Assembly: GCA_001466705.2 (NCBI GenBank)
Contig: LATX02000133.1
Coordinates: forward strand, 930,001 to 994,000
Direction: 5' to 3'
DNA: 64,000 nt
From: Moniliophthora roreri
Taxonomy: Eukaryota; Basidiomycota; Agaricomycetes; Agaricales; Marasmiaceae
Position 1 is the stretch's first letter, and each line of letters opens with the position of its first letter. Of this stretch, positions 15,412-53,179 are shown one piece after another. A program made the position numbers and the translations under genes. The notes under the pieces are model-generated. The model saw nothing but the letters and a program-made list of their open reading frames with translations. It made no database searches and had not been told where the DNA came from.

Positions 15412-16536
15412 TCAGTAGAAATGGGGCTCGTCAGTGAAATTGGAGAGGGTGGACGAATCAGCGTAGTCCTCCTCAAAGCCATCAAGAGTTGGATGACTCC
15501 GAACAGACCTTGCGATAAAAATTTGTTCGCTTCGTTGTAGTCGTGGGCAATGTTCAGAGAGATGGTGAGGTTGGTATGTGTCGCAGACTGAACACTGGTA
15601 GTCTCGACAGTCCTGTGTATGGTGACCCTGCTTACCGCATTGATCGCATTGATGAATTCAGGGATGGATATCAGACTGGGTGCTGAGGATGACGGTGGAC
15701 TTTCTGGTTCAGTTGTTGCGGCGTTGGCATTGTTTTCGGGGAGGGACAGTTCGTTCGGGGGTGACGGGACGGAGAGTCCAGGAGGAGGTATCCCAGGGGT
15801 CAGCTGGGGCGTTCCAATCCCTGGTGGTCCAGGTGTTCTTGGGGTCGCTGTTTTCTGGGATGGTAAAAGGAATACAAGGGGGTGGGGTAGGGGTTCTGTC
15901 GAGTTCGGCTCTGGTGACGGGGATCTGTTTGACCTCGGGGCTGAACTGGACTCTGAGCTGGATATTTCGGGGGATGGGTTCTGGGGGCGCTGACGCTCTG
16001 GTTGCGGTGGAGGGGACGGGGGAAGATCTGGGCTCGGGACTCGGAGATGATTCTAGTTGATCGAACCTGTCTGTATTGAAACGGTAGATCTGGATGGGGG
16101 CGGACGTGGCTCGGGAATTCTCGACGAGCTCATAGTCCTCGAGGGCCTCTGTGGGAGATCGAGGAGGATATTCCAGTCTGCCTGTGGGAGATGTCTCTCT
16201 CCTGCAGGCGGTGGCGTAATCTGATTGGGAAAAGGGATGAGGGGGAAAGATTTCTGGGGCGCAAATCATCAGTACCGTCAACTGTCCTGGGATGGTGAAT
16301 CCCAACGCGGCTATGTCGACGGCGAGTTTGTTGAGCTGGAGGTTGGCAGCGGTCATCAATTGATCAAAATGTTGGTATTGTCTTTGAACGAATTGGTAAT
16401 CCCCGAGGAGATGGTTGACGAAGGGGGTATCTCGAGCGGCTGAGATGATTCTTTCCCTATAGGTGGTGTTGTTGAGGAGGTAGAGGAGTTGGGCTGCGGT
16501 GGGGCGGAGGTTGTCGTAGGTGAATGATTGAGACAT
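15412..16536 (-). pseudogene. Element A ORF3 downstream of pol, with C-terminal tandem zinc knuckles
   Basis: Starts at ATG 16536, overlapping the last 181 bases of pol in another frame. It is open for 275 residues (QLLYLLNNTTYRER and a P/T/S-rich middle) to a TGA at 15711-15709. The same frame continues past that TGA and a second one at 15661-15659 into a double zinc knuckle at 15648-15547, and ends at 15414-15412. First knuckle CDQCGKQGHHTQDC (CX2CX4HX4C), four residues, second CSVCDTYQPHHLSEHC (CX2CX6HX4C). Element B has an ORF in the same place with the same spacing, so this is a conserved coding unit. By analogy with nucleocapsid it may bind nucleic acid; the function is unknown. Confidence 0.7.
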
Positions 16537-19500
16537 TTCAATATGAGTGCTTTGGTGAGGATTTTCCTAAGCTTGTTGGCCTTTTTATAGTCTGCTAGTG
16601 TCTCTTTGGCATGTTCGAAGTCTTCTTCCCACAGCCATTCATTCTCCGCCGAGGGATATCCCTTCCAGGATACTAGAAACCTTTGAGGTTTCCTTTTTGG
16701 GGTATGTCCGATGATCGCCTCTATCTTGTGTTCCTCTTGTCCTTCTATCAGATCAGGCGGTGGTTTTAGAAAGTTCCTTCTGTGGACTTTGTTTTGTTTG
16801 TATGGGGATAAGAGAGATGCGTGGAAAACAGGGTGAACTTTCCATTGTTCTGGTAGGGTCAGTTTGTACGTCACTGGTCCTAATACTGACTCGATCTTGA
16901 AAGGTCCTTCCCTTTTTGGTGCCAACTTCTTCGATGGATATCCAAAGTTGAGGTTTTTTCCTTCTAACCACACCTTCTGTCCTACCATAAATGGGGTAAA
17001 TGATTGCTTGATTGCTCCTTCCATCTTCCTCCTTGCTAACTCCATAAGAGAATATGTTTCTTCTCGGAGTTTCTTTAGCTCCGACAGCCTCATTTCCACC
17101 GATGGGACCATTGTTTTCGTAAAGGCTGTTGGAAGAGGTCTCGGATTGTATCCCATCATTAGATAGAATGGGGATCTCTTCATAGTAGAGTGTGTTCTGT
17201 TATTGTGTGCGAACTCGGCAAAAGGGAGAAGTTCCGCCCACTTGTCTTGTTGTCTGGAACAGAACAATCGAAGGAAGACTTCTAACTCCTGATTGACCCT
17301 TTCAGATTCTCTGTCTGTCTGTGGATGGAATGCGGTACTCATCATGTGTTTTACTCCTAACTGTTTTCCTAGCTCTTGGAAGACTTTTGCGGCGAATCGG
17401 GGATCTCTATCAGAGATAATTTTGTTGGGTAGTCCGAATCTTTTGTATACATTGTTGAGGAGTAATGTCGCCGTTTGTTCTGCATCGATGGTTTTGTTAC
17501 ATGGTGTGAAAATTACCCCCTTAGTAGAGGAGTGGTCCACCACGACTAAGACAGTATTGTAACCTCTCAATTCTGGCAGGTCTGTGATCAAATCCATCAT
17601 GATTTTGGAGAATGGTAACACATCTTTTTCCCCTTCAATTGGTAGTAATGGAGGTTTATTCAGATTAGTGATCCCTTTGCTTTCTTGGCATTTTGCGCAA
17701 CCATCGACAAACATCTTGACGAATTTAGCCATTCCTGGCCACCAGTAATCTCGAGAAACTTGTTCTAGAGTGTTGAATTGTCCTGGATGTCCGATTCCTT
17801 TTGCTTCATGTATTGTCTTTACGATTTCACGTTGTAGATTTCCTTTGTTCGGAACGTAGCATCTATTTTTGTAAAAAAGGAGCCCATCACGAGTTGTCCA
17901 GTCTTCCAATGCCGACTTGATTGGTGGTGGTCCTTCTTTCAGAATCGTCCTCATTGCATCATCGTATAAAGTTTCTCCTTTCAGGTTTTCTATTAAGTCG
18001 TTTTGTAGTTTGACGTCTACAGCTCTGAGGAAGAACTTATCTGGGAACATGACGACATTGTCATTGTCATTTTCGTTGTCATCAATGTGATCTGATCTTC
18101 TAGAAAGAGCGTCTGATTGTGTCATTTTGGTCCCGGGTGTATGGATTAATTGGAGGTCGAATTGTGAGAGAAATAAACTCCATCTGGCTTGTCTTTGGTT
18201 TAATTTTTGTGCCGTCTTGAAGAACATGAGGTTTTTGTGATCGGATAGGATAGTGATCGGATGTTTTCCTCCCATAAGGTAATGTCGCCACAATTCAAGG
18301 GCTCTAACAATACTAAAGAGTTCTCGATCGTATATTTCGTAATTCCTTTCTGTCGGTGTGAGAGAGTGGGAGATATAGCCGCATGGATGCCATTCTCCAT
18401 CTGTCCCTTGTTGTCTAAGAACCGCTCCCGTTGCCCATTTCGATGCGTCACATTCTATCAAGAAGGGTTTTTCAGTATCAGGCATGATCAGCACTGGTTC
18501 GGAGAGAAACTTCCGCTTTAGTGCGTCAAATGCAGTTTGACATTCTTTGGTCCATTCGAACTTCTTGTCTTTCTTTGTTAGTTCGTTTAACGGCCTAGCG
18601 AGTTCCGAGAATCGTCCAATAAATTTTCGATAGAAGTTTCCGAATCCTAGGAATGATCGGACTCCTCTGACCGTCGTGGGTGGTTTCCAATCTCGTATTC
18701 CGGCTAGTTTGATAGGGTCCATTCCAATATATCCCGGTACGATGATCATTCCTAAAAAGTCTATCTCCATAACATTAAACTTGCACTTCTCTGGTTTTAG
18801 GAACAAGTCGTGGAGTCTGAGTCGTTTTAGAACTTTAATCGTTCATTTTCGATGGGTTTCCAGATCCAAAGAAAATATCAAGATGTCATCCATGTAAATG
18901 ACTATCCAACCTTCCTCAATGTAATCAGCGAAGATATCGTCCATAAACGACTGGAACATAGCTGGAGAATTGGATAGTCCAAAGAACATCACCATTGGTT
19001 CGAAAAGTCCTTTGTTTGTCTTGAAAGCGGCTTTCCATTGGTCTCCATTTTTGATTCTGATATTGTTGTAACCGTTTCGTAAATCCAGTTTGGTAAAGTA
19101 TTGTGCTCCTTTTAGTTTGTCAATAAGATCCGAGACTAGCGGTAAGGGGTATGCGTTTTTGATTGTCGCCTTGTTTAGTTCTCGATAATCTTGACATGGT
19201 CTAAAGGCTCCTTTTTCCTTTTTTGATACAAAGAAGAAAGGTGAAGCCATCGGAGATTTCGAGGGTCGGATGTAGCCTTTTCGGAGATTGTCAGTTAGGA
19301 ACTCGTTCTGTAGTTGTTGTTCTATCAGAGATAGGGGGTAGACTTTGCAGTTTAAAGTTTCCACCCCAGGTTTGAGGTCTATGGCGTGGTCATAAGGTCT
19401 AGATTCTGGAAATCTTTCTGACGCGTGTTTTTCGAATTGTTGTTTGTAATCGATGAGGAAGTCTGGAATTAATTCTTCAATAGGTTTCTTTTCTTCTGTC

Positions 19501-20042
19501 TTCTGATTGTGTTCCAGTGTTTGGGAAATGGAGGTTTTTGCTCGTATGAGAACTTCCGCCGGGGTATGGTCTAATACTCCTTTGAAGCGTCTAATGTCGA
19601 GTTTCCTTCTCAGTGGAAATTTGATTTCTCCGTTTCTCCAGTTAATCTGAGGATTATAATGTCGTAACCATGGCATTCCGAGGATGAGTTGTTCACCTCC
19701 TAATCCAGATACCATGAGATCTTCTGTCATCTTTTTATCTCCAATAAAGAAGGTTGTTTGGGCCGTGTGTGTTACATATGCTGAAGTATTCAGAGTTCCA
19801 TCTATGTTGAGAACTTTTATCCTTTTTTCTAATTTGGTTAAGGGAAGACATAACTTTCGGGCCATTACTCGGCTGATAAAATTCCCTTCTGCTCCTGAAT
19901 CTAGGAGTGCTAATTTTTCAACAATTTGTTCTCCAGTATAGAGTGCCAGCGGAATATGCATAGAATTTCGTTCCATCGCAGCTGATACAGTTACACTAGA
20001 GATACAAATTGGCGGGGGAGACGTCGAGCTCAACCGCCGCAC
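16356..20042 (-). pseudogene. Element A Pol: protease, RT, RNase H, integrase, chromodomain; one TGA
   Basis: Open from 20042 to 16356 except for one TGA at 18845-18843. Domains in order: aspartic protease ALLDSGAEGNFI; reverse transcriptase with [24 protein letters not shown] and YMDDILIF; RNase H with FLIECDASKWATG and LSDHKNLMFF; integrase HHCC zinc region GHPGQFNTLEQ to CAKCQESK; DDE core with MDLITDLP and HPQTDRESERVNQELEVFL; chromodomain QRFLVSWKGYPSAENEWLWE. The TGA sits in HRK-stop-TIKVLKRL, where element B has Trp ([12 protein letters not shown]), so a Trp codon became a stop. Chromodomains in this group direct insertion to marked chromatin. Confidence 0.93.
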
Positions 20043-21151
20043 TAAAAACCCCCTCCTTCCATGAGGTCTAAGATCTGGGTTTGTTCTTCTTCAGAGAAGT
20101 CTCGGTAGATGGCACGAATTTTATGATACACATCTTCTGGGGTAGACTTCTTCAGATTTTCTTTCTTCTGTTCATTCCTCGGCTTCTCTTGACAATTCTT
20201 CGCAATGTGTCCTGGTTTGCTACATTTATAGCATAGTCCCTTTCGGCGATATTCTTGTGCTTCTTCGTCAGAGATCCGATTTACCTTTGTTTCGGTTTTA
20301 GGTGGCTTCTTTGACCTTTCTCCTCCGGTGATGGCTATCATGGTAAGCCAGGCATTGTTGTATTTCCTGGCCCTGTTGTACCATTTGTCGATAGTATCTG
20401 GTTGGTCGGGCTGCATCAAACATGATTTGAGAAGGGCAGGATGAAGTCCAGCGAGGAAGTGATCAATAAGAGCTCTGTTCTCATATTCGGTATCTGCGGC
20501 GAGGAGACGGAATTCTGTGATATATTCGTCCACATGTTTCTTGTTTTGTTTGAGAAGCTTCATCTTTAACCTGGTGTCGGTTCCAATGTCTAGGGGTCGA
20601 AACGCCTTTTTGAAATCTGTCAAGAATTCTTCCCATGTCGTTACGTGAGTCTGATCCTCTGGTTTGGTATCAGATGGTTCTGCTTCCTTCTCCCGAAGTT
20701 CTTTCTTGTATTCATCTGTCTTGGCTTTCATCCAATTTGCGGCTTGTCCTTCTTTCATATACGACAGGGTGAATAATATTTTGTCTTTGTCGTTAGGGTA
20801 GAGGGTTTCATTAGCCATAAGGTATAAGTCTACTTCCGTAAGGAAGGTACTAGCCTTGGCTGGGCTTCCATCGTAGTGGTTTGGTACTGCCACCTTGTTC
20901 TCTTTCTTTTTCTCTCCATTCGTTAACGTCCTTAAGGCGGAAATTAAATCCTGAAGCGACGCGGAGGTCTGCTGAGTAGTCATGGGGTCTGATGGAGGAG
21001 AGGAGGAAGGTGACGTGGTTATGATTGGGGTTTCTGGTCTGTCGGTTTCTGATGGCCTGTTCATAAACGACGGCTGGTTCAGGGTTTCGGAAGAGCAGGT
21101 CTGAATTTCCATATCTGTAGTCGGGGAGTTCGTCTGTTCCTGAGAAGGCAC
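20042..21151 (-). CDS. Element A Gag
   Basis: 369 residues. An S/T/P-rich N-terminus is followed by a retrotransposon capsid region (about residues 85-260, with KASTFLTEVDLYL and WEEFLTDFKKAF) and a CCHC zinc knuckle CYKCSKPGHIAKNC near residue 315. It forms the particle shell and binds element RNA. It ends MEGGGF-stop, with the stop lying inside a -1 slippery context. The frame is intact. Confidence 0.93.
   Translation of the reverse strand: MPSQEQTNSPTTDMEIQTCSSETLNQPSFMNRPSETDRPETPIITTSPSSSPPSDPMTTQQTSASLQDLISALRTLTNGEKKKENKVAVPNHYDGSPAKASTFLTEVDLYLMANETLYPNDKDKILFTLSYMKEGQAANWMKAKTDEYKKELREKEAEPSDTKPEDQTHVTTWEEFLTDFKKAFRPLDIGTDTRLKMKLLKQNKKHVDEYITEFRLLAADTEYENRALIDHFLAGLHPALLKSCLMQPDQPDTIDKWYNRARKYNNAWLTMIAITGGERSKKPPKTETKVNRISDEEAQEYRRKGLCYKCSKPGHIAKNCQEKPRNEQKKENLKKSTPEDVYHKIRAIYRDFSEEEQTQILDLMEGGGF
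20043..20052 (-). promoter_or_regulatory. Element A -1 ribosomal frameshift site at gag stop
   Basis: In gag frame the minus strand reads GGG-GGT-TTT-TAG. G-GGT-TTT fits the X-XXY-YYZ heptamer for -1 slippage, one codon before the TAG at 20044-20042. After slipping, the ribosome enters the pol frame at TTA-GTG-CGG. The pol ORF has no ATG near its start, which supports frameshift expression of Gag-Pol. I cannot judge a downstream RNA structure by eye. Confidence 0.7.
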
Positions 21152-21485
21152 TTGTGACTGATGGGAAGAGTCTGGGGTCGATATTCTCCTTGTCTGGTCT
21201 GACAGCTCAAAGCCTGTCGCGAAGTCAATTGTTTGTCTGGTCCTGGACCTGGTTCTGGGTGTTCTGGTTGTCCGTTGTTGGATCTCTTCTCTTGCCTCCT
21301 CTTGGGCAATTAATTCTAGTCTTTGAATTCTTTGCTCGAATGTGAGCTCAGTTTCTGGAGTAACAAGAAGAAAGGCTCTCCTCTGTTGTTCTCATTCAGC
21401 TAATTCTGGATCTTCGGCCGTGGTTCGCCGATGTCTAGACGTGATGTCTTCGTTGGGTGCCTTAACCTAGAAAGGTTGGCAGGAT

Positions 21486-37583: not shown

Positions 37584-38286
37584 TAACAGCACACATCACA
37601 AAATAAAAATCACAGTTGAGTACTACTTCTATTTTGCCATCTTCTCACCAGTTTTGCTGTAACACATTATCATAAAGGTGGTCCTGTTAGGGCACTACCT
37701 AGTATAAGACATAACCTTAGAGGCCTGTTAAAGTGATAGAGCATGAGCAGGTAGAGTTCAATAGCAAAATATAAGATAAAATTACAGCAACATGGCATGA
37801 TATGTGCAGCCATACTCTGGGTATGGGATTAAGAAATGATAATAGGTCAGTAAAACCAATGTTAAGTAGGTTATAAGAAACCCACAGTATATAAGAAATA
37901 AGTGCATAGCTGGGTGAGAATGAGGTGAATTGAAGTGAAGCTTAACAGAATTGGTCATGTAGTTGTGGAAATGGGTAATTATAGTAGAAAACAAGCAAAA
38001 TAGACAATTATAAGCAAAATGGATGATCATTCATTTCCACTTATGATCTTCCATGATCACTAGTTGGGGTCTGTTTTCTGCCATTATCAAGGCCAAAATG
38101 GATGGTAATGTATTTTAATCATAATACTCTATTTTGGCTTATTATTCTACATGCTCATTAGGTGTTTGATTTGCTGATGTCATCCTTCACAACCTTCACT
38201 GCTTTAACAAATTCCCAATCCAGTTTATAGTGTGTGGTGTCTGAATTCATGCTTTATAGACCCATTTCCACCAGGTTTTGAGTTGT
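37584..38286. other. CpG-poor sequence, nothing recognised
   Basis: No coding or structural signal that I can support. It lies between the join at 37583 and R copy 2. Confidence 0.35.
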
Positions 38287-40036
38287 TAATTTGTCTAAGA
38301 TAAGACTAGTGGAAAACTACCCAAAAGATAACCTCCAAAAGTCTAACTCAGGTTGTTTTGCAAGTGTGAATCAATGTAATCAGAGTTGCCACACTTAGAA
38401 TGCCAACAAAACTCTTAGCTAGATTGATTTTCTCTTATTGAAGCAATCTACTCCAAAGTGTTCACCTCCAGAGGAGTATATATGGGTTTAAAAAGAGTTT
38501 ATATCCAAACACACAAACACACACACAAGAACACAGTGCACAAAACACAAAACACAAGAGCTACAGTCCCACCAAAAGACTCAGTAGCCAATATAGTCTG
38601 ACTCTATGGAGTTCAAGACTTCTTTAAGATAACTACAGTACACAGTGTACTGGAAAAGGTCCTAGACCAGTTTCTACAAAGAGCTTAATCACAGGCCCAA
38701 TTTCTTTGTTAAGACTCTAAGTGTGTCACAACCTGATACCCAACACAGGCCACACTCTAAAAGCCACCAGAACTTTTAGTGTAAAGTTATCTCTTAGAAA
38801 AGTGCTACAAGGCACTCAAGATGTTATTTCTTGTCTCTTATGACACAAGTTTGTTATCAGATTTCTATCTCTCTGGAGTCACTCAGAACCAATCTTCAGG
38901 GCCTGAAGTAAGGAAGCAAAACTGGAATGGCACACACAATTATACACCAAACAAACTCATCATGTATTCACAATCAGAGGGGGCAGAGTTACTTGAGTAT
39001 ATATGAATATCTAGCTGTCCTTATATACAATCCACAGAATATATCTACAGAAAATTAGAAACAATGTCTGATAATTCAAGAAATAATAAACAAGTGACTG
39101 AGATGCTAAAGGAAAGAATATTCAGATGTCATAGAGTCTGGCCACTAGAGTATCCAACCATATCTGTATGGGTATCTACATCTCCAGGTGTTCTGGACTC
39201 TATAATTTGTATTTTCGCTTTTCTAAGTCAAGTATCTACAAGCAGATGAGTGTATCCTGTCCCATTTTCATATAGCATTTTCCCTTTCTAGCATCTGCAC
39301 ATTAACAGAGGCCTAGATGCCAAAGTTCTCAAGGTCAGAACACACTGTTACTGTTCCTATCTCCTTTGATAATGCATACTTGGTCTTAGTTAGGACTCCT
39401 TATGCATTAGATATTCTTTGTATGTCTTGTTGTGTCTGTCTATTAAGTCACTTCAGTCCTAAGAAAGTAGTCTTCTAGCTTCTGAGGTTACTTCATACTT
39501 AATTATGTTATTTCATATGTTTTCACTGCCTCTGAACTCTTTCTTAAGAGATTGTCTGCTTTGACTTTGATCTGTATATTGACTTCAGAGGATAATTGTT
39601 CTTTGATTATTCCTGTTCTAAGTTGTCTTTCTGTTTTAATGTTTCTTTTGAGTACCTCTGTACTATCTGACTGCATGTTGCACTTTGCAGATGTCATAGA
39701 AAGTTAAAATAAGACCCTATTAATAGCACTTTGAGAGCTTGGTTAACTAGCCAATGCATTCATTGTGCTCTAGTTAGGTTCTCTATAGGTTTCAGGAGTA
39801 ATCTGCTTTGGATCTGATACATAGATAAGTCAGAAAGTACAGCTTAGAGACCTCTGTATAGCATGTCATATAGCTCTTTATACTTCCCAATGCACTATAG
39901 CTTCTCTAAGGCAATGACTAGCAGACTGGGCTCACTCTAGTCCTTATTACCCACTATCTTGTGTCATATTAAAGTGTTCTGATTCAAAAGTAATGTAAAA
40001 TGAATAAAATTGGGTCTTTTCTAGGTTTGCCATATT
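38287..40036. repeat. Repeat unit R, copy 2, without insertions
   Basis: About 1.75 kb alignable with the three pieces of R copy 1. It gives the empty sites of the solo LTR and of element B (AAGTATCTACAAGC near 39231 against GGTAT duplicated around element B). No ORF of known family. Confidence 0.8.
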
Positions 40037-40453
40037 ATCAGAACAATTTGCAGTGCATGTCAAATCACTGAAATTTCACTGCCCAAGGTAAGCATCAAAA
40101 TTTTTGCCTGTATGGCATCAGCTAACAACAACTAGGATGAAACAAAGATCAGCTTGAGAACCAAAACTTTGGAATGTCCCAATGCATAGAAAAAGCCTCA
40201 AAATTCTGTTGCTCATGGTGAGTACTAATGTCTTGTCTCTCCAGCAACCAGTGACCTCTTCCTAATGCAGGGAACAATACAATGATATTCAGCTTGAGGC
40301 CTGAAATTATGGAGGATGCTGACTGAGATAAGGAGAATGAACAAAATTATGACAGCTCAGGTGAGGGACAAAATTTTGCAGGAATGGAGCATTTGCAGGA
40401 GAGTAGCTAACAAAATAACAGACCTCAAGCCCACACTGTAAGTGTAAATAAAA
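40037..40453. other. Unique-looking A/T-rich sequence, nothing recognised
   Basis: No gene or repeat recognised up to the join at 40454. Confidence 0.3.
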
Positions 40454-40457
40454 NTTG

Positions 40458-42188
40458 TCGGGGATTCCAATCTGGCTCATTTAGTGCCAGCCTGGGCACC
40501 GTTTTTTACAAGCAATTCTAATCAGACTTAACCATTGAAAAGGACCTACAGAGATGAATGTATATGGGCACTCTAGCAACAAACACATTCCATTCTGACC
40601 CAGGCTCTGGATAGTGCACAAGCATCTTGGCATTGCGCTCAAATTGTATCTGTGCCATACACCCTGTACTAGCAATGCTGACAGAAGCTTGAGGGCTTCG
40701 ATCATTCTATTCAGTCACTCCTCATGTTCGGTGTGTGTGAATTAATTAAGATTAAATGACTAGAAACTCACTCTGCAATCCGTTGTGACAGCCATTTTCT
40801 CTGTCGAAGCAGGTATGCATAGTCAATCCGATATCCACTATGTAGCTCTGTAACATCCATCTATGAGGTGAATGCCCTATAAGCTGTTCCTAAAAAGTGA
40901 TAATTCTTCAGCAATTCAAGAGATAATCAGGATATGGTACCTGAATTAGACTTGCCATGAACTCATGATAACCAATTCAAGACCTTCAACCTTTTGTCCA
41001 CTCAACCCTTGTAGGGATAATGGCTGATGTCAGCGCATACAATGTGATATGTATCAGGTGCAGCAAAAACGACAGAGAAGTCGTTGCGCATTCTCTCCTG
41101 ATGATGACACCTTTGTGTCCCAAGTATCACAACTGATAAGATGCCAGGAACAGGCTTTACCTGGCATTGGATCAGACCAATTTCACACTGGAAATGGGCG
41201 CACCTCCTCGCACCTCTCTTCTGCCCTCCACCACACCTCTCTCATCTAGTCTCTGGCCTCTTCAAGTCCCATGAAAAATTTTCAAGTGCCCCATGTGTCG
41301 TCTGCCAGTGATCACTTCTGGCAACAGTGACTCATCACCGGTCCCTCAACTTCAACCATCAATCTGGTGACCATTTGTCATCGTACCTGTATCCATCATC
41401 ATCATTCCCGCCATCCTGGACGTCAGCTGGTCACCAGTCCCTTACTGCTGGTCTTAGCAACTCATGTGACTCTTCACTGGTTCTGCCATGTCAAGCATTG
41501 TTCCCACAGCCTTCATTGTCATTCTGAATGCCCTCATTGTTGCCCAGAGTAGCCGTTGTTGTTGTCATAGAGAAGAATCTCAGGTGAGTCTTAATATTGT
41601 GAAAGGATTCTCAATACTAACATTTTGTTTATAGATGTCAATAGTTATCAACTATATCACTAACCAGTATCAAGAAAGTTTTCATTTTGACTTGACGACT
41701 GTCCCAAACCTGTCAGAAGGAGGGCAGAGAGCATGCTATCCTTAAGCCTCAAGACAGTCTGCTGTTCTTCCCCTCACAAGTCCTGATATACTCCACCTTC
41801 TATCCTTATGAACAATGTCTTCACCCCATTCTTGTGCATCCCTTGTGTCACATGAATACTCGAAGCCCGGGAATATGTGACTTCAAACATGAGGGATGTA
41901 TGGTTTGGTCCAATGTTGCTCCAGGCTTACTGATTGGGACAAGTAGCTTGTTGGGCTGGATGAAGAGTCAGGGAGGGGATGCAATATTTGCTTGGAGATA
42001 TAAATATAGTGAGTGTCACAGTCTTTGGTTGAAAGCCATACTCTGCTCTGAATCTTAAGTCTACCATTCACTTACTCTCATCCAGATTGCATGTTTTCAA
42101 CATTCCTGGGGACTCTCTGGCTCCAAATGACTCCAAACCTATTGTCTCTGTCATTCCACATGCATAGAAACCTTGGTGTCAAGTCAGA
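40458..42188 (+). repeat. Unclassified 1.7 kb repeat, copy 1
   Basis: Matches 42196-43926 over its whole length, with differences mainly transitions. A plus-strand start encodes GDSNLAHLVPAWAPFF, and intron-like GTGAGT/TAG borders occur near 41584-41633, so it may descend from a spliced gene or transposon. I cannot assign a family. It starts and ends at contig joins. Confidence 0.6.
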
Positions 42189-42195
42189 NGTCTTT

Positions 42196-43926
42196 GTTGG
42201 AGATTCCAATCTGGCTCATTTAGCGCCAGCCTGGGCACCGTTTTTTACAAGCAATTCTAATCAGACTTAACCATCAAAAAGAACCTACAGAGATGAATGT
42301 ATATGGGCACTCTAGCAACAAACACGTTCCATTCCGACCCAGGCTCTGGATAGTGCACAAGCATCTTGGCGTTGAGCTCGAATTGTATCTGTGCCATACA
42401 CCCTGTACCGGCAATGCTGACAGAAGCTTGAGGGCTTCGATTATTCTATTCAGTCACTCCTCATGTTCGGTGTGTGTGAATTAATTAAGATTAAATGACT
42501 AGAAACTCACTCTGCAATGCGTTGTGACAGCCATTTTCTCTGTCAAAGCAGGTATGCATAGTCAATCCAATATCCACTATGTAGCTCTGTAACATCCATC
42601 TATGAGGTGAATGCCCTATAAGCTGTTCCTAAAAAGTGATAATTCTTCAGCAATTCAAGGGATAATCAGGATATGGTACCCAAATTAGACTTGCCATAAA
42701 CTCACAATGACCAATTCGAGACCTTCAACCTTTTGTCCACTCGACCCTTGTATGGATAATGGCTGATGTTGGCACATACAATGTGATATGTATCAGGTGC
42801 AGCAAAAACGACAGAGAAGTTGTTGTGCATTCTCTCCTGATGATGACACCTTTGTGTCCCAGGTATCACAACTGATAAGATGCCAGGAATGGGCTTTACC
42901 TGGTGTCGGATCAGACCAATTTCACACCGGAAATGGGCGCACCTCCTCACACCTCTCTTCTGCCCTCCACCGCACCTCTCTCACCTAGTCTCTGGCCTCT
43001 TCAAGTCCCATGAAAAATTTTCAAGTGCCCCATGTGTTGTCTGCCAGTGATCACTTCCAGCAACAGTGACTCATCACCAGTCCCTCAACTTCAACTATCA
43101 ATCTGGTGACCATTTGTCATTGTACCTGTATCCATTGTCATCATTCCTGCCATTCTGGATGTCAGCTGGTCGCCGGTCCCTTACTGCTGGTCTCAGCGAC
43201 TCATGTGACTCTTCACTGGTTCTGCCACATCAAGCATTGCTCCCACAGCCTTCATTGTCATTCCGAATGCCCTCGTTGTTGCCCAGAGTAGCCGTTGTCG
43301 TTGTTGTAGAGAAGAATCTCAGGTGAGTCTTAATATTGTGAAAGGATTCTCGATGCTAACATTTTGTCTATAGATGTCAATAGTTATCAACTATATCACT
43401 AACCAGTATCAAGAAAGTTTTCATTTTGACTTGACGACTGTCCCAAACCTGTCAGGAGGAGGGCAGAGAGCATGCTATCCTTGAGCCTCAAGACAGTCCG
43501 CTGTTCTTCCTCTCACAAGTTCTGATATATCCTGCCTTCTATCCTTATGAACAACATCTTCACCCCATTCTTGTGCATCCCTTGTGTCACATGAATACTC
43601 AAAGCCCAGGAATATATGACTTCAAACATGAGGGATGTACGGTTTGGTCCAATGTTGCTCCAGGCTTACTGATCGGGACAAGTAGCTTGTTGGGCTGGAT
43701 GAAGAGTCAGGGAGGGGATGCAATATTTGCTTGGAGATATAAATATGGTGAGTGTCACAGTCTTTGGTTGAAAGCCATACTCTGCTCTGAATCTTAAGTC
43801 TACCATTCACTTACCCTCATCCAGATTGCATGTTTCCAACATTCCTGGGGACTCTCTGGCTCCAAATGACTCCAAACCTATTGTCCCTGTTGTTCCACAT
43901 GTATAGAAACCTTGGCGTCAAGTCAG
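42196..43926 (+). repeat. Unclassified 1.7 kb repeat, copy 2
   Basis: Second copy of 40458-42188, continuing into unique sequence. Part of it (about 42840-43390) recurs inverted at 45755-46257, and about 42505-42630 resembles 56519-56640. Confidence 0.6.
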
Positions 43927-44831
43927 AAATAACATTTCCGATCAAATCTCTAGGGCTACAGTATACTGAGAGGCACTCCTGGTACTTCAGGCTTGCACCG
44001 AATGCACTGTGGCCTATACTGAATTGAGGACCACCTTAATCTGCGTTATCTCACAGGCTCGCCATTGTTTTCCCAGCCACACAACAAAACGATGCCATCT
44101 TTCATTTGTGGCTGAATAGCTGTGATAGCTAAAGAGATGGGGCGTTGTCAGCAATGAAAATCAAGGTACAGGTCAAGTTTTAGTTGTACCACACAACAAG
44201 CACTTGCACTTTTCTTAGATGCTTATTGTTTGAAAGGACTACTCTACTTATTTTCTCAGATTTTGATAGTCCGCAATGTATTTTTGTTATTATTGAATGA
44301 CAATACTAGAATTGCAGTTGTAGAAAATTGTCTTGGGAAACAGAGGTGTGAGGTATGGTTTTCAGCTGGTTCAAATTGTCTGTCCTTTACATGGTATTAC
44401 TGGTCCCTTTGGTCTTGGGATTTCAGTAATGTTCAAAGGAAACCATATAGAGCAGAGAAAGAAGTTACAGGGGGTCTGGTTCAAAAGTTCACCATAGGAT
44501 GTTGATTTGAGTCGAAGATTATTTATGATCAATATGTGGTCATGCATCAATATCTGTCTCAGACAGAATCTCAACCTGAACCACCAAATTCCCCAAGTCT
44601 GTCCACTCTCAGAAGCTTCAGAAACTCATTAAATATTGTAAATGATATTTATTCACCTGATTTTTGACCACAGACCCATAGGGGAATTGATAAACGTTGG
44701 AAATCCCAAAAAGGTGGTGAGTTTCTCAGCTTTTTGTGACTTTCGACTCAACTCACAGGTTCTCTACAGGAGATAATGCTAAGATGTTTGCTAAATATAC
44801 TCCTCAGTGATATTGGAGTGCTTCTGGATCA
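43927..44831. other. No supported gene
   Basis: CpG-poor sequence with short open frames and no recognisable motif. Confidence 0.3.
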
Positions 44832-45754
44832 GCATATTGAATAGAATAATGGCATTGAATGTTACAGGAAACCAATGAACTGTCAGAAGGGGTGAGTTTC
44901 TCAGATCTTTGGAGTGAATTGGGCTGTTGCATCTCTTCTATTAGATACCGAGACATCTGCAGCACTTAATATACAAATATATTAATGGTTAATACATATA
45001 TACACCCTTCTGAAGGTGGTAGGTTAGTTAATACCCTCACAATAAGGTCAAAATCAAGAAGACAGAGAACCAGCACTTATCAGGTGCTAGGGACTTACAC
45101 CAAACATGGTTTCCACACTCCGGTTTGAGACAGAGGGACACGACTGAGAGTACACATGTATAGATTATTGAGTAAACAGGATTAAATACATGTGTGGGTG
45201 ACCACAGGTGTATTTGACATTGTACAATACAATATACTGTATTCTAGTTCTGGTGCATAGAGAGCAGGATAGTCGCACTCACCATGCACAAAACAAGAAA
45301 GCTGTATCAAGATAAGTAGCAGAGATGAGCCTGATGCCACCAATGCCAGGAGAGGGACTGCCATCAAAATATCAGAGGACGCTGGGAGTGACCCAATTAG
45401 ATAATGGGTGATGTTGAAGGCAGACTCGGCATCAGAGAATGAGGCCACAGGATGATAGTGGATATGAAATGCCTCCCATAAAGTGATCCAACATCCAATA
45501 TATATGTGCACTGTCTCCTAGTCCTCACTATTTCAGTCACTTGTCAAGTGTTCCCGCAACTCCCAATAACTACTCGCTCCTGGATGCTGCCCTCCTGATG
45601 GGCATAGTGGAACCATCATGTAGAATTATAAAAGTGAAGAGGGGCAATAGGAAGGGGAAGACTATGAAAACATCTTGGACTCGAGAGCTTGATTAATGTT
45701 GCAGTTGCAGAGACACAGTGCGGCAGTAGATAACATTAATTTGAATCTAGAGAC

Positions 45755-46257
45755 AAAACGTTAGCATTGAGAATCCTTTCACAATATTAAGACACACCTG
45801 AGATTCTTCTCTACGACAACGACAACGGCTACTCTGGGCAACGACGAGGGCATTCAGAACGACAATGAAGGCTGTGGGAGCAATGCTTGACGTGGCAGAA
45901 CCGGTGAAGAGTCACATGAGTTGCTGAGACCAGCAGTAAGGGACCGGTGACCAGCTGATGTCCAGGATGGCAGGAACGACGACGATAGATACAGGTACGA
46001 TGACAAACAGTCACCAGATTGATGGTTGAAGTTGAGGGACCGGTGATGAGTCACTGTCACTGGAAGTGATCACTGGCAGACAACACATGGGGCACTTGAA
46101 AATTTTTCATGGGACTTGAAGAGGCCAGAGACTAGGTGAGAGAGGTGCGAGGAGGTGTGCCCATTTCCGGTGTGAAATCGGTCTGATCCGATGCCAGGTA
46201 AAGCCTGTTCCTGGCGTCTTATCAGTTGTGATACCTGGGACACAAAGGTGATGATGA
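45755..46257 (-). repeat. Inverted copy of part of the 1.7 kb repeat
   Basis: The reverse complement aligns with about 42840-43390, including TTAATATTGTGAAAGGATTC and the stretch around the CCCATGAAAAATTTTCAAGT block. It is more divergent from both plus-strand copies than they are from each other. Confidence 0.7.
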
Positions 46258-46592
46258 GACTCGGATACACGTATATTTTTGTCTTCCTGTGGTCAGATGA
46301 GCGTTATGCACCAATATCGGAGACTCTCTTGTCCCAGCGCACTGGCCCACAAGATTCCGAAACATGCATGAGATCCGGATACCAAGGAAATCATAGATGC
46401 TGATGACTAGTTTGAGCATTATAGCATTTCCAAGGTTCGGTGCAAGAGCCGGAGGAATAAAAAGGTTCTGTGCACCTTCACTGTAGCTTGTTCTGCGGAT
46501 CCATTCACACCAAATATGTCGTGCACTTGGGTATGGCAGATGATGTGGCTCGTCGCAGGGGACAAACTTTAGAAGTCACAGAGGTACCCTCT

Positions 46593-46672
46593 GGCTCAAG
46601 GGGGCCGCAAAAAATTTTTTTAGTACACGATAATGATTTTTTTTTAAGGACGGCTGGAGAGAACCAACTGAC
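46593..46672 (-). repeat. SINE-like repeat, copy a
   Basis: GGCTCAAG, A/T-run, TTTTTTTTTAAGGAC, then GAGAACCAACTGACTGACC. Member of the family described at 50078-50170. Duplicated at 48959-49038 by the contig overlap. Confidence 0.45.
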
Positions 46673-46762
46673 TGACCTATTATGTATATTACTATAATAG
46701 AAAAGTGTCACATGTTCAGAAAAACATACGAGTACGCTACGTGGCAACCCCCAACCAAACTA

Positions 46763-47196
46763 TTACTGTACTCGCTGTCTCTTCGATGCCTTGCATGGTT
46801 CACAGATAAAATTGCAGTTAGGGTACACTTCTCCAACGCAGTCCATATGAAACTGTGAAGACTGTGAGTTCCAATCCGATATCACTGGAAACAAACATAG
46901 CACTCACGTATTTTGTCTCACAGCTATTCCTTCTGCAGATAATGACTCTGAGGCTATCATCGGCAGCATCCTCAGGTGTTATAACAATCCCGCAAAGACA
47001 TTCCTGCAACAGCAAGTCAATTTTTCAGGTTCTTTGCTGTATTGAGCAAGTGGGTGGTGAGTATTGGCCTCAGGTACACTGGCAGGTAACTGAAGGATAC
47101 GAGTGCGAAGTTTTTCAAGGATATCAGTGTGGTGGCTTTGGGTAGTCTCGATAGTGGCAACCAATGATGTGGGGGGTGGCGACATAGATTGGGGTT
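46763..47196 (-). pseudogene. 3' part of PHD-finger gene, redundant copy cut at contig join
   Basis: Same as 49129-49562 at the 2366-base offset, containing the PHD finger exons. The 5' exons are missing because the contig ends at 47196. It probably represents the same gene rather than a paralogue. Confidence 0.75.
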
Positions 47197-48232
47197 NGCA
47201 TATTGAATAGAATAATGGCATTGAATGTTACAGGAAACCAATGAACTGTCAGAAGGGGTGAGTTTCTCAGATCTTTGGAGTGAATTGGGCTGTTGCATCT
47301 CTTCTATTAGATACCGAGACATCTGCAGCACTTAATATACAAATATATTAATGGTTAATACATATATACACCCTTCTGAAGGTGGTAGGTTAGTTAATAC
47401 CCTCACAATAAGGTCAAAATCAAGAAGACAGAGAACCAGCACTTATCAGGTGCTAGGGACTTACACCAAACATGGTTTCCACACTCCGGTTTGAGACAGA
47501 GGGACACGACTGAGAGTACACATGTATAGATTATTGAGTAAACAGGATTAAATACATGTGTGGGTGACCACAGGTGTATTTGACATTGTACAATACAATA
47601 TACTGTATTCTAGTTCTGGTGCATAGAGAGCAGGATAGTCGCACTCACCATGCACAAAACAAGAAAGCTGTATCAAGATAAGTAGCAGAGATGAGCCTGA
47701 TGCCACCAATGCCAGGAGAGGGACTGCCATCAAAATATCAGAGGACGCTGGGAGTGACCCAATTAGATAATGGGTGATGTTGAAGGCAGACTCGGCATCA
47801 GAGAATGAGGCCACAGGATGATAGTGGATATGAAATGCCTCCCATAAAGTGATCCAACATCCAATATATATGTGCACTGTCTCCTAGTCCTCACTATTTC
47901 AGTCACTTGTCAAGTGTTCCCGCAACTCCCAATAACTACTCGCTCCTGGATGCTGCCCTCCTGATGGGCATAGTGGAACCATCATGTAGAATTATAAAAG
48001 TGAAGAGGGGCAATAGGAAGGGGAAGACTATGAAAACATCTTGGACTCGAGAGCTTGATTAATGTTGCAGTTGCAGAGACACAGTGCGGCAGTAGATAAC
48101 ATTAATTTGAATCTAGAGACAAAACGTTAGCATTGAGAATCCTTTCACAATATTAAGACACACCTGAGATTCTTCTCTACGACAACGACAACGGCTACTC
48201 TGGGCAACGACGAGGGCATTCAGAACGACAAT

Positions 48233-48287
48233 CTTCCGACACCCTCGTTACGAACTGCACCGTCTTGGCCACTTCTCAGTGTACTCA
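48233..48287. other. 55-base segment that is the non-reversed complement of the duplicate copy
   Basis: Position by position, bases 48233-48287 are the Watson-Crick complement of 45867-45921 in the same order (GAAGGCTGTGGG becomes CTTCCGACACCC). Sequence before (ending GACAAT) and after (TGCTGAGACC) is identical in the two copies. The version at 45867 is the ancestral one, because its reverse complement matches the plus-strand relatives near 41460-41520 and 43200-43260. Confidence 0.9.
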
Positions 48288-48958
48288 TGCTGAGACCAGC
48301 AGTAAGGGACCGGTGACCAGCTGATGTCCAGGATGGCAGGAACGACGACGATAGATACAGGTACGATGACAAACAGTCACCAGATTGATGGTTGAAGTTG
48401 AGGGACCGGTGATGAGTCACTGTCACTGGAAGTGATCACTGGCAGACAACACATGGGGCACTTGAAAATTTTTCATGGGACTTGAAGAGGCCAGAGACTA
48501 GGTGAGAGAGGTGCGAGGAGGTGTGCCCATTTCCGGTGTGAAATCGGTCTGATCCGATGCCAGGTAAAGCCTGTTCCTGGCGTCTTATCAGTTGTGATAC
48601 CTGGGACACAAAGGTGATGATGAGACTCGGATACACGTATATTTTTGTCTTCCTGTGGTCAGATGAGCGTTATGCACCAATATCGGAGACTCTCTTGTCC
48701 CAGCGCACTGGCCCACAAGATTCCGAAACATGCATGAGATCCGGATACCAAGGAAATCATAGATGCTGATGACTAGTTTGAGCATTATAGCATTTCCAAG
48801 GTTCGGTGCAAGAGCCGGAGGAATAAAAAGGTTCTGTGCACCTTCACTGTAGCTTGTTCTGCGGATCCATTCACACCAAATATGTCGTGCACTTGGGTAT
48901 GGCAGATGATGTGGCTCGTCGCAGGGGACAAACTTTAGAAGTCACAGAGGTACCCTCT

Positions 48959-49038
48959 GGCTCAAGGGGGCCGCAAAAAATTTTTTTAGTACACGATAAT
49001 GATTTTTTTTTAAGGACGGCTGGAGAGAACCAACTGAC
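48959..49038 (-). repeat. SINE-like repeat, copy a (redundant)
   Basis: Same sequence as 46593-46672 within the 2.36 kb duplicate. Confidence 0.45.
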
Positions 49039-49128
49039 TGACCTATTATGTATATTACTATAATAGAAAAGTGTCACATGTTCAGAAAAACATACGAGTA
49101 CGCTACGTGGCAACCCCCAACCAAACTA

Positions 49129-49924
49129 TTACTGTACTCGCTGTCTCTTCGATGCCTTGCATGGTTCACAGATAAAATTGCAGTTAGGGTACACTTCTCC
49201 AACGCAGTCCATATGAAACTGTGAAGACTGTGAGTTCCAATCCGATATCACTGGAAACAAACATAGCACTCACGTATTTTGTCTCACAGCTATTCCTTCT
49301 GCAGATAATGACTCTGAGGCTATCATCGGCAGCATCCTCAGGTGTTATAACAATCCCGCAAAGACATTCCTGCAACAGCAAGTCAATTTTTCAGGTTCTT
49401 TGCTGTATTGAGCAAGTGGGTGGTGAGTATTGGCCTCAGGTACACTGGCAGGTAACTGAAGGATACGAGTGCGAAGTTTTTCAAGGATATCAGTGTGGTG
49501 GCTTTGGGTAGTCTCGATAGTGGCAACCAATGATGTGGGGGGTGGCGACATAGATTGGGGTTGGGCTGAGCTGGAAGCTGAACCATTCGAGGTGGTCGAT
49601 GGTGTATTGTGTCCTTTTTTCTTCAATGACTGTATTGGTTTGGGTACCTGTACATTAGGCAATACCGAAGCCACTGCCTTAGGTAGAAGGGACAGAATAG
49701 ATTGTTGTTNTAGCTTCATAGCTTCACAGGTAGGTGTCAGATAATGCTTGTTGGCAAAATTGCCTTTACCAGCCTTTCCAACACGTATGTGTTCGTTGCA
49801 ATTGGGGCAGTGAACCTTCCCATCAACTACAGGAATATTTTCAAGCTCCTACATTTGGCATAACTATCAGTCAAGGATTAGACCAGGTCAATAAAAAATT
49901 TACCAGTGGGATGGGTTTGGCCAT
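49129..49924 (-). CDS. Small PHD-finger protein with N-terminal CCHC-like finger
   Basis: Four exons on the minus strand: 49924-49904, 49848-49444 (including the single n at 49710), 49369-49274 and 49218-49129. They total 612 bases (203 residues), in phase throughout. Start MAKPIPLELENIPV. Residues about 20-50 carry HCPNCNEHI, then NFANKHYLTPTC, a C-x2-C...H-x5-C arrangement that may bind zinc. The middle is S/T/P/Q-rich. The C-terminus is a full PHD finger: CLCG, then CRRNSC, FHMDC, and CNFICEPC, giving the Cys4-His-Cys3 order of PHD domains that read histone tails. The exact length of the gap at 49710 is unknown, although the frame is open across it. The local context is repeats, so it could be transposon-associated. 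Confidence 0.72.
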
Positions 49925-50131
49925 GCTGTAAGATGTTGCAAACAAAGCATCACATGGTCTGGGTCCCACAAGTTGAGATAAGTGCCAATTTAGTTTTCCT
50001 TTACTCATAAAAACTCTCTAATAGCTAATTGGGCTGTATTTAGTCCCAAAAAGTACTCTAACATTACAAAAAAAAATTTGGCTCAAAAAAATTTTTAAGG
50101 ACCCCAGGACTGAACCAACCGACCATCATCG
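49925..50131. other. Upstream region of PHD gene
   Basis: Contains the likely promoter of the PHD gene (read on the minus strand) and SINE-like copy b. Nothing else recognised. Confidence 0.35.
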
Positions 50132-50170
50132 TGTTCAGGATCCGCGGCCTGCTACCCTCTTGCTCTGGCT
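50078..50170 (-). repeat. SINE-like repeat, copy b
   Basis: Plus strand: TTGGCTCAAAAAAATTTTTA, AGGACC, then GAACCAACCGACCATC, then GTTC-GGATCC-CGGCCTGC. On the minus strand this ends GGTTGGTTCAGTCC before an A-run, reminiscent of an RNA polymerase III B box followed by an A tail. Copy d (60805-60900) aligns over the whole length. tRNA origin is only suggested. Confidence 0.5.
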
Positions 50171-51110
50171 ATGTATCAGCCACAGTTTTTTCACTGGGTA
50201 CATGTGCCCTCTAGTCTCTATGTCCCCCTGCTTCTCAAGAACAGTAAGCTCACACCCGTGCACAGAAAACTGAGGAAAACCCGAGGCATACTGTTCTTCT
50301 ATTTCATTCAACCCTTTATTCTTCTGCTCTGTAGGACCAAACTTCAGTTTCGAAGCTGCAGTTTACATGGCCACATTCTGATAGTTTCAGGAATCAGCCT
50401 AGCTCAGTAATTGAGTTATTTTGGACAGAATGGCTTTTTTTCTTTTTGTTAGAGCAGTAGTACTGTAGTACTGTGTCCAATGTACAGTAGTATCGTCTAT
50501 CCTGATGGACACTGAAGGCCAATGAGAATTGCAATGAGCATGACCATGGATATCCATACTTACAGAATTTCCTTCTCATTCAACGAGATGTTCCAGCATC
50601 GTCCAAAAGGTGAAGAGGGTCAGAGGGTCACCCGTGTCTGTGTCTGTCAAAAACAAAGAATCAGATTGTCGCTGGAGTTTAGCTGACGACTCTGGCCAAA
50701 CAAAACTCTTCATTCTCCATCATCATCAACTACGACTAACTCGGCATGGCCTAGCCGAAGGAACGGCAATAAAAAGTCTGTTTGCAAGCTTTGGTACCAT
50801 TTGGAGGACACTTGAGAAAAGGAGAGGGAAAAGAGAAGGTGTCTTCATCAAGCGCGTTACCTGTCATTTCTATTGAACACCCGAGTATGAGTAAGTATGG
50901 AAGCTGGGACACCAATTCGGAAGAGTATGTCGTTGACGAAGCTGGAGAGCGAGAAGCCGTTACCGGAATGTGTGGAAATGGGTCAGTTCGGCAGAGCATC
51001 GAATGATTGGACGCTGACGGGGAGTTCAGGCATTGTCAATCTATTCCTATGTGTTTAGTTGGTACTAATGGTGGTTTTATTCCAGATTTAGATAGGTGTA
51101 ATTGGACCAG
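50132..51110. repeat. 0.98 kb direct duplicate, copy 1
   Basis: Offset of 980 bases to 51112-52090, with scattered transitions, many at CpG. The join at 51111 lies exactly between the copies: unmerged overlap or second haplotype. No gene recognised, although open frames exist on both strands. Confidence 0.8.
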
Positions 51111-51111
51111 N

Positions 51112-52090
51112 TGTTCAGGATCCGCGGCCTGCTACCCTCTTGCTCTGGCTATGTATCAGCCACAGTTTTTTCACTGGGTACATGTGCCCTCTAGTCTCTA
51201 TGTCCCCCTGCTTCTCAAGAACAGTAAGCTCACACCCGTGCACAGAAAACTGAGGAAAACCCGAGGCATACTGTTCTTCTATTTCATTCAACCCTTTATT
51301 CTTCTGCTCTGTAGGACCAAACTTCAGTTTCGAAGCTGCAGTTTACATGGCCACATTCTGATAGTTTCAGGAATCAGCCTAGCTCAGTAATTGAGTTATT
51401 TTGGACAGAATGGCTTTTTTTCTTTTTGTTAGAGCAGTAGTACTGTAGTACTGTGTCCAATGTACAGTAGTATCGTCTATCCTGATGGACACTGAAGGCC
51501 AATGAGAATTGCAATGAGCATGACCATGGATATCTGTACTTACAGAATTTCCTTCTCATTCAACGAGACATTCCAGCATCGTCCAAAAGGTGAAGAGGGT
51601 CAGAGGGTCACCCGTGTCCGTGTCTGTCAAAAACAAAGAATCAGATTGTCACTGGAGTTTAGCCAACGACTCCGGCCAAACAAAACTCTTCATTCTCCAC
51701 CATCATCAACTACGACTAACTCAGCATGGCCTAGCCAAAGGAACAGCAATAAAAAGTCTGTTTGCAAGCTTTGGTACCATTTGGAGGACACTCGAGAAAA
51801 GGGGAGGGAAAAGGGAAGGTGTCTTCGTCAAGCACGTTACCTGTCATTTCTATTGAACACCCGAGTATGAGTAAGTATGGAAGCTGGGACACCAATTCGG
51901 AAGAGTATGTCGTTGACGAAGCTGGAGAGCGAGAAGCCGTTACCGGAATGTGTGGAAATGGGTCAGTTCGGCAGAGCATCGAATGATTGGACGCTGACGG
52001 GGAGTTCAGGCATTGTCAATCTATTCCTATGTGTTTAGTTGGTACTAATGGTGGTTTTATTCCAGATTTAGATAGGTGTAATTGGACCAG
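51112..52090. repeat. 0.98 kb direct duplicate, copy 2
   Basis: See 50132-51110. Part of it (about 51740-51900) also resembles 57050-57200, a more distant copy with a CpG-rich, host-like composition. Confidence 0.8.
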
Positions 52091-52128
52091 ATGCCCTAAT
52101 ATTTCCTGAATCTTTTTTCCTAGAACTA

Positions 52129-52239
52129 CTGGGGTATTTCGATTGATTCGGATGGTCACGCATCACAGGGCTCAAAATTTCCGAATATTTTCGGATGGTC
52201 ACAGGTCACAGGCCATCCGAATCAATCGAAATACCCCAG
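52129..52239. mobile_element. 111-bp MITE with 27-bp perfect TIRs and TA duplication
   Basis: CTGGGGTATTTCGATTGATT continues to CGGATGG and is mirrored exactly at the other end (CCATCCG to ATACCCCAG). TA flanks both sides (52127-52128 and 52240-52241), as in Tc1/mariner-type insertions. The centre has a second small inverted motif CCGAATATTTTCGG. Confidence 0.85.
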
Positions 52240-52241
52240 TA

Positions 52242-53179
52242 TCCTCAAGATCTGGCACATGCAGTGGCAGCGGTATACAACCTTGGGAGTCAGAAAGCTC
52301 GACTGAGGACATAACAGGCACCGGTTCGTTCCTGCTATCTCATTCCTATTCGTACTCTAAATCTACTTCAGTACCTAGGCAAGCCCTAGGCGCCTCGGAA
52401 AAGCTCCCTCATCGCGACCACCATTATCAACTGATTTCCAAGTGTCCCACAATTTTTCACACTTCGTCAAACATCTGGATGGGTTCTTTTTTGAGAAGAG
52501 GCGTGTCGATCATAGAGTATGCTTTGAGTCTCGGCTTTTCATTCCAACGCCAAAATGCGCAGGCTGATCAGGAATTGAAGATCGGGATATTTTGCTACAA
52601 GGAGAGTAGTGGAGAGGTCCTACGTGACTTGCAAGGGGGATACCTCGGTGTGCTGTATGCCTCTATCCGTGATAAGAGGAGTAATGACTAGGTGCCTACC
52701 TTTGTCTTTAGGTCTGAATAACAAGGCTCAGGTAGATCTAGCTCTAGCTGTCCAGGATTCATTTTTATGGGCCGCCTTCGAGTCGAATGGCTCTTCATTA
52801 TGAGCCATGAAGAAAATGAAGAGAACGGGTGGGTGTACGGAAGAGAGGGATAAGAGCTTCGAATTTCATGACGGAGAAAGGTCGGGATCTGATTTCGCGT
52901 TACTGATGGCCAGCTAATTCTGGAGTACACGCAGATTACACATCTGTTAAGGCACATAGATACTGGTACTAATATACATACATGAAAAAGTCAAACTATG
53001 TGCTACATATGTGCTTGATATAGAAATTGCTTGCATGCGTAGTCGAATGTGCAAACGAGAGATTCCAGAAATGTGAAAGAACGAACACAGATAAAAGCAA
53101 TGGATGAGATAATAACCTAGAGTCAGATCCGTCCAAAGAACCAACGAAACGAAACGGAAAAAAACAAGTCTAATGCGAT
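52242..53179. other. Host-like sequence without a recognised gene
   Basis: CpG-rich compared with the repeat tracts. An open frame from inside the MITE to 52691 has no recognisable domain. The stretch 52668-52800 resembles 57301-57420 (TAATGACTAGGTGC then GGCCGCCTTCGAGTCGAA). Confidence 0.35.

What the first reader, a model, noticed from the sequence alone, without database searches (positions are those of the whole stretch)
48233..48287. 55 bases are the complement of the duplicate copy but not reversed
Within two 2.36 kb copies that otherwise agree everywhere I compared, bases 48233-48287 equal the Watson-Crick complement of 45867-45921 read in the same direction. An inversion, gene conversion or template switch gives a reverse complement, never a parallel complement, so no known recombination or replication process explains it. 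The flanks are intact to the base and the length is unchanged (55 against 55). The 45867 version is ancestral because two plus-strand relatives (near 41.5 and 43.2 kb) agree with it. The likely explanation is a data-handling or deliberate alteration; if real it would be mechanistically new.
Basis: seen in the sequence. Interest (0 to 1): 0.92.

Follow-up and report, generated by a model that had tools for sequence, protein, structure and literature searches.

The report
Computer-made complement in duplicated contig ends
A 55-letter piece of a cacao-fungus genome reads as the letter-by-letter complement of its twin copy, but the twins are very probably one locus listed twice by the assembly, so the oddity is most likely a data-handling alteration and not biology.

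Summary
Window 48233-48287 is the parallel (unreversed) complement of 45867-45921, 55 of 55 bases, inside two copies that agree at the other 2310 of 2365 bases. It is unique: its first 30 bases (up to 3 mismatches) occur once in the 59.4 Mb assembly, the normal form 16 times. The parallel complement of the surrounding 510-base repeat hits only this block.

The 'duplication' looks like an assembly artefact. A single N (47197) lies exactly between the copies. Four relatives run without break across the right border and one across the left. Five of 23 nearby single Ns have flush duplicated flanks, three of them imperfect. So the chromosome probably holds the locus once, and one contig version carries a complemented slice.

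No known DNA transaction makes a parallel complement. Best explanation: a string operation (complement without reverse) on one redundant contig, accidental or deliberate. A SOLiD colour-space slip fits formally, since the copies differ by two colours, but no sister transformations were found. The assembly matches public Moniliophthora roreri 'WG66'. I could not check the deposited record or reads.

The parts
48233..48287 (+). 55-base block, exact parallel complement of 45867-45921
   Evidence: its first 30 bases occur once in the assembly with up to 3 mismatches
45867..45921 (+). normal form of the same stretch in copy 1
   Evidence: first 30 bases at 16 places with up to 3 mismatches
44832..47196 (+). 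copy 1: right end of contig 42190-47196
47197..47197 (.). single N, scaffold join exactly between the copies
47198..49562 (+). copy 2: left 2365 bases of the small contig 47198-49709, read as an unmerged overlap with copy 1
49710..49710 (.). single N closing the small contig that holds copy 2
41108..41641 (-). inverted relative of 45741-46250, carries the normal form
42847..43380 (-). inverted relative of 45741-46250, carries the normal form

Best explanation
It is not a biological change. Two neighbouring contigs overlap by 2365 bases and were put side by side with a single N instead of being merged, so one locus is written twice. In the second writing a slice of 55 letters was complemented but not reversed by a computer step, either an editing or strand-handling mistake or a deliberate insertion of a test anomaly. 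Shown: the exact complement, the N at the junction, the continuity of relatives across both borders, the uniqueness of the block. Inferred: that the chromosome has one copy with the copy-1 sequence, and that the change was made in silico. Whether it was made before or after deposition of the public record is not known.
For: 55 of 55 complement with unchanged flanks and length, the only differences in 2365 bases, so a copy 2 otherwise identical to copy 1 was altered in place. Single N exactly at the junction. Four relatives (C66, C115, C105, C90) continue without break from the base matching 47196/49562 into the sequence after copy 2, and the C78 relative aligns without break across 44832, so neither border is an element border. 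Flush duplicated flanks at 5 of 23 single Ns in 224 kb, one of them 1582 bases at 100%. Block found once in the assembly, and the parallel complement of the 510-base family segment hits nothing else. No other parallel complement in 234,704 held bases, of which 57,748 have a repeat partner that could have shown one. Block 26-mer absent from viral contigs and genome contigs.
Against: The same block is in the assembly copy behind genome search, not only in the window file, so the change is not confined to the window text unless both were altered together. No tool step or log that would make such a change was seen. Of the 5 flush junctions, 3 have copies that differ by 2-5%, so some of those may be separate repeat copies and not redundant overlaps; 18 of 23 Ns show no flush duplicate.
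Confidence: 0.8

Rival explanations
1. Colour-space decoding slip. In SOLiD two-base encoding a sequence and its parallel complement have the same colour string; two wrong colours 55 bases apart, each shifted by the same amount, give exactly this block when decoded.
For:: the two copies differ at only two colours, one at each border. (passages of PMC4569514): each colour string stands for four base sequences, and a misread colour causes a chain of errors. (passages of PMC2909219): an error in colour space propagates when translated.
Against: The same slip should as often give the other two transformations (A<->C with G<->T, A<->G with C<->T); none of 18 or more bases in parallel orientation in 234,704 bases. 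No evidence that this isolate was sequenced by SOLiD: paper searches found nothing on the assembly's methods.
Confidence: 0.1
2. Another fault in assembly, scaffolding or polishing (for example a local patch written with complement but without reverse) in the small contig 47198-49709, present in the original deposit.
For: The block lies in a small contig (2512 bases) between two single Ns, the sort of piece that gap-filling or patching touches.
Against: I know of no program with this fault (recall, not searched by program name). A systematic fault should recur; none found among 57,748 bases with repeat partners or in the 510-base family genome-wide.
Confidence: 0.08
3. Real change in the cell: two true tandem copies, one of which had 55 bases copied with parallel polarity (a 'swinger' exchange A<->T plus C<->G, or 3'-to-5' templating).
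For: The pattern is formally what such a process would leave. Papers by Seligmann and co-workers claim systematic exchanges, A<->T plus C<->G among them, in RNA and DNA (passages of PMC7027195).
Against: The duplicate is probably not genomic. Polymerases and ligases join strands with antiparallel polarity (established knowledge). One isolated case with perfect borders and no other mutation.
Confidence: 0.01

Closest known systems
Unmerged overlapping contig ends in scaffolds (artefactual tandem duplication around a gap)
   Same: Identical flanks on both sides of a gap character, borders at contig ends.
   Different: Such artefacts do not complement a slice of one copy.
SOLiD colour-space translation errors
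   Same: Parallel complement is one of the four readings of a colour string; two colours explain the block.
   Different: No sister transformations seen; platform unknown.
Claimed 'swinger' sequences (systematic nucleotide exchange, A<->T + C<->G)
   Same: Same letter transformation (passages of PMC7027195).
   Different: Those are claims about RNA and mitochondrial or other DNA. Here a short internal block sits in a probably redundant nuclear contig.
Short inversion
   Same: Local, length preserved.
   Different: An inversion gives the reverse complement; here the order is kept.

Membership tests
Unmerged contig overlap | gap character exactly between the two copies | tested here: met
   single N at 47197 between 44832-47196 and 47198-49562
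Unmerged contig overlap | related loci continue across both copy borders without a second copy | tested here: met
   right border: C66, C115, C105, C90 (best candidates only); left border: one relative, C78
Unmerged contig overlap | read depth of the two copies together equals one locus | not testable with these tools
   no reads held
SOLiD colour-space slip | copies differ only by colours at the block borders | tested here: met
   two of the 74 compared colours differ
SOLiD colour-space slip | other two transformations also present in the assembly | tested here: not met
   0 parallel matches of 18 or more bases for either in 234,704 bases, limited to 57,748 bases with a partner
SOLiD colour-space slip | SOLiD data used for this assembly | not testable with these tools
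   no methods paper found
Inversion | reverse complement of the original | tested here: not met
   same-direction complement 55 of 55
Swinger exchange in vivo | present in independent reads or isolates | not testable with these tools
   no reads; no second isolate's DNA held

The most novel reading that the evidence does not exclude
A cell process copied 55 bases with parallel strand polarity into one of two true tandem copies. This would be the first cleanly bounded nuclear example of parallel-complement DNA.
Probability: 0.01. Interest if true: 0.97.

Novelty: not a real feature. Interest (0 to 1): 0.12.

Why it matters
As biology it very probably does not exist. As a warning it is useful: tandem 'duplicates' split by a single N in scaffolds should be read as contig overlaps before an evolutionary story is told, and a parallel complement is a clean marker of string handling or of colour-space decoding. 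If reads confirmed it, it would contradict the antiparallel rule for templated DNA synthesis.

Tried and rejected
Chance: rejected (55 of 55). Inversion or template switch: rejected, order not reversed. Foreign sequence: the block's 26-mer has no exact match in viral contigs or genome contigs (those collections do not hold this fungus, and the tool says records of the window's own genome may be left out). Natural variant in other family copies: eight of nine aligned copies carry the normal form and only copy 2 departs; the block's 30-mer occurs once in the assembly (the tool's backward-read control found 7 forward and 9 reverse, which is the normal family itself). Public protein that would show what the deposited record says here: the 71-codon minus frame across the block found no candidate, so this stayed open. 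Other transformations: A<->C,G<->T and A<->G,C<->T gave no parallel match of 18 or more bases; antiparallel ones gave 3 and 1 matches of 19 bases, taken as chance. Rfam: no match in the window. Tandem Repeats Finder: none in 38000-53000 with periods up to 500. Literature on colour space: the first search returned image-processing papers, the second the two SOLiD papers used. Other searches used. Papers: PMC10468315, PMC4076250, PMC4569514, PMC7027195, PMC2909219, passages only; the other listed papers, search listing only. The passages of PMC10468315 describe other M. roreri assemblies (11 to 21 contigs), not this one.

Full report
What is there. Bases 48233-48287 equal the complement of 45867-45921 read in the same direction at 55 of 55 positions, with identical flanks. 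The copies are 44832-47196 and 47198-49562; over 2365 aligned bases those 55 are the only differences. It is the only parallel complement of 20 or more bases in the window. The block is also an exact 55-base parallel complement of a third copy at C72:1030643, but its flanks match copy 1 to the base, so it looks like an in-place change of copy 2's own letters.

Which copy is original. Nine family members were aligned: eight agree with copy 1 here and only copy 2 departs. The first 30 bases of the block occur once in the 59.4 Mb assembly with up to 3 mismatches, the normal form 16 times on both strands. The parallel complement of the 510-base family segment finds only the block (the tool scores best candidates only).

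Why the duplicate is probably not real. The window has 17 isolated Ns, and one, 47197, lies exactly between the copies. Sequence matching the end of copy 1 runs straight on, in C66, C115, C105 and C90, into sequence matching what follows copy 2 (the query ends at the base before the query begins, and so do the hits). The C78 relative aligns without a break across 44832. Neither border is therefore an element border; both are contig ends. In 224 kb around, all 23 Ns are single and 5 have flush or nearly flush duplicated flanks: 1582 bases at 100%, 1104 at 98%, 1734 at 95% (offset by 4 bases), 979 at 98%, and this one. Against: three of those five are imperfect, with mainly transition differences where they were counted without gaps, so they may be separate repeat copies, and 18 of 23 Ns have no flush duplicate. 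The SSPACE-LongRead paper says that contigs with a negative gap are merged if an overlap is found and that N marks a positive gap (passages). That unmerged negative gaps get one N is my recall, and which scaffolder was used here is unknown.

What made the block. A parallel complement needs a strand to be inserted or copied with the wrong polarity, which no known polymerase, ligase or recombination path does (established knowledge). In text it takes one mistake: complement without reverse. The one sequencing route that fits is two-base colour encoding, where a sequence and its parallel complement share one colour string; the copies differ by two colours, one at each border (encoding in the passages of PMC4569514). 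That route predicts two sister transformations as often, and none was seen in 234,704 bases, 57,748 of which have a repeat partner. I therefore put a one-off in-silico alteration first (0.8), colour space second (0.1), another assembly fault third (0.08), and a cellular process last (0.01).

Where it comes from. A protein named WG66_011933 of Moniliophthora roreri is listed on a contig of 1,062,295 bases, the exact length of contig C72, and matches C72 at 100% over residues 164-406. The Gypsy polyprotein frame is 89% identical to a M. roreri MCA 2997 protein. The assembly copy behind the tools holds the block too, so I cannot say whether it is in the deposited record or was added later. The public protein search across the block found nothing, and no methods paper for this assembly was found.

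Prior claims. Papers by Seligmann and co-workers describe 'swinger' exchanges, including A<->T with C<->G, in RNA and DNA (passages of PMC7027195). The letter rule is the same, but nothing here supports membership: no reads, no second isolate, and a duplicate that is probably redundant.

Noticed in passing
window 40455-42188 / 42194-43927 and 50132-51110 / 51112-52090: Neighbouring repeat copies across single Ns differ almost only by transitions (89 transitions to 3 transversions; 18 to 0), 63 of 89 and 15 of 18 in CpG/TpG/CpA context against about 21% of sites. This looks like CpG deamination or a RIP-like process in repeats.
   Followed up: partly
C72:845473 (outside the window): 1582 bases on both sides of a single N are 100% identical, another likely unmerged contig overlap that inflates the assembly.
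   Followed up: partly
window 16356-21391, minus strand: Ty3/Gypsy chromodomain retrotransposon with gag, protease, RT, RNase H and integrase domains in three overlapping or adjoining frames; the last frame is 89% identical to a M. roreri MCA 2997 protein.
   Followed up: partly
window 41108-41641, 42847-43380 (minus) and 45741-46250 (plus); C72:1027998/1030512; C78:116862/121220: A repeat family occurs as facing inverted pairs about 2.2 to 4.4 kb apart at several places, perhaps parts of a larger element; not identified.
   Followed up: no
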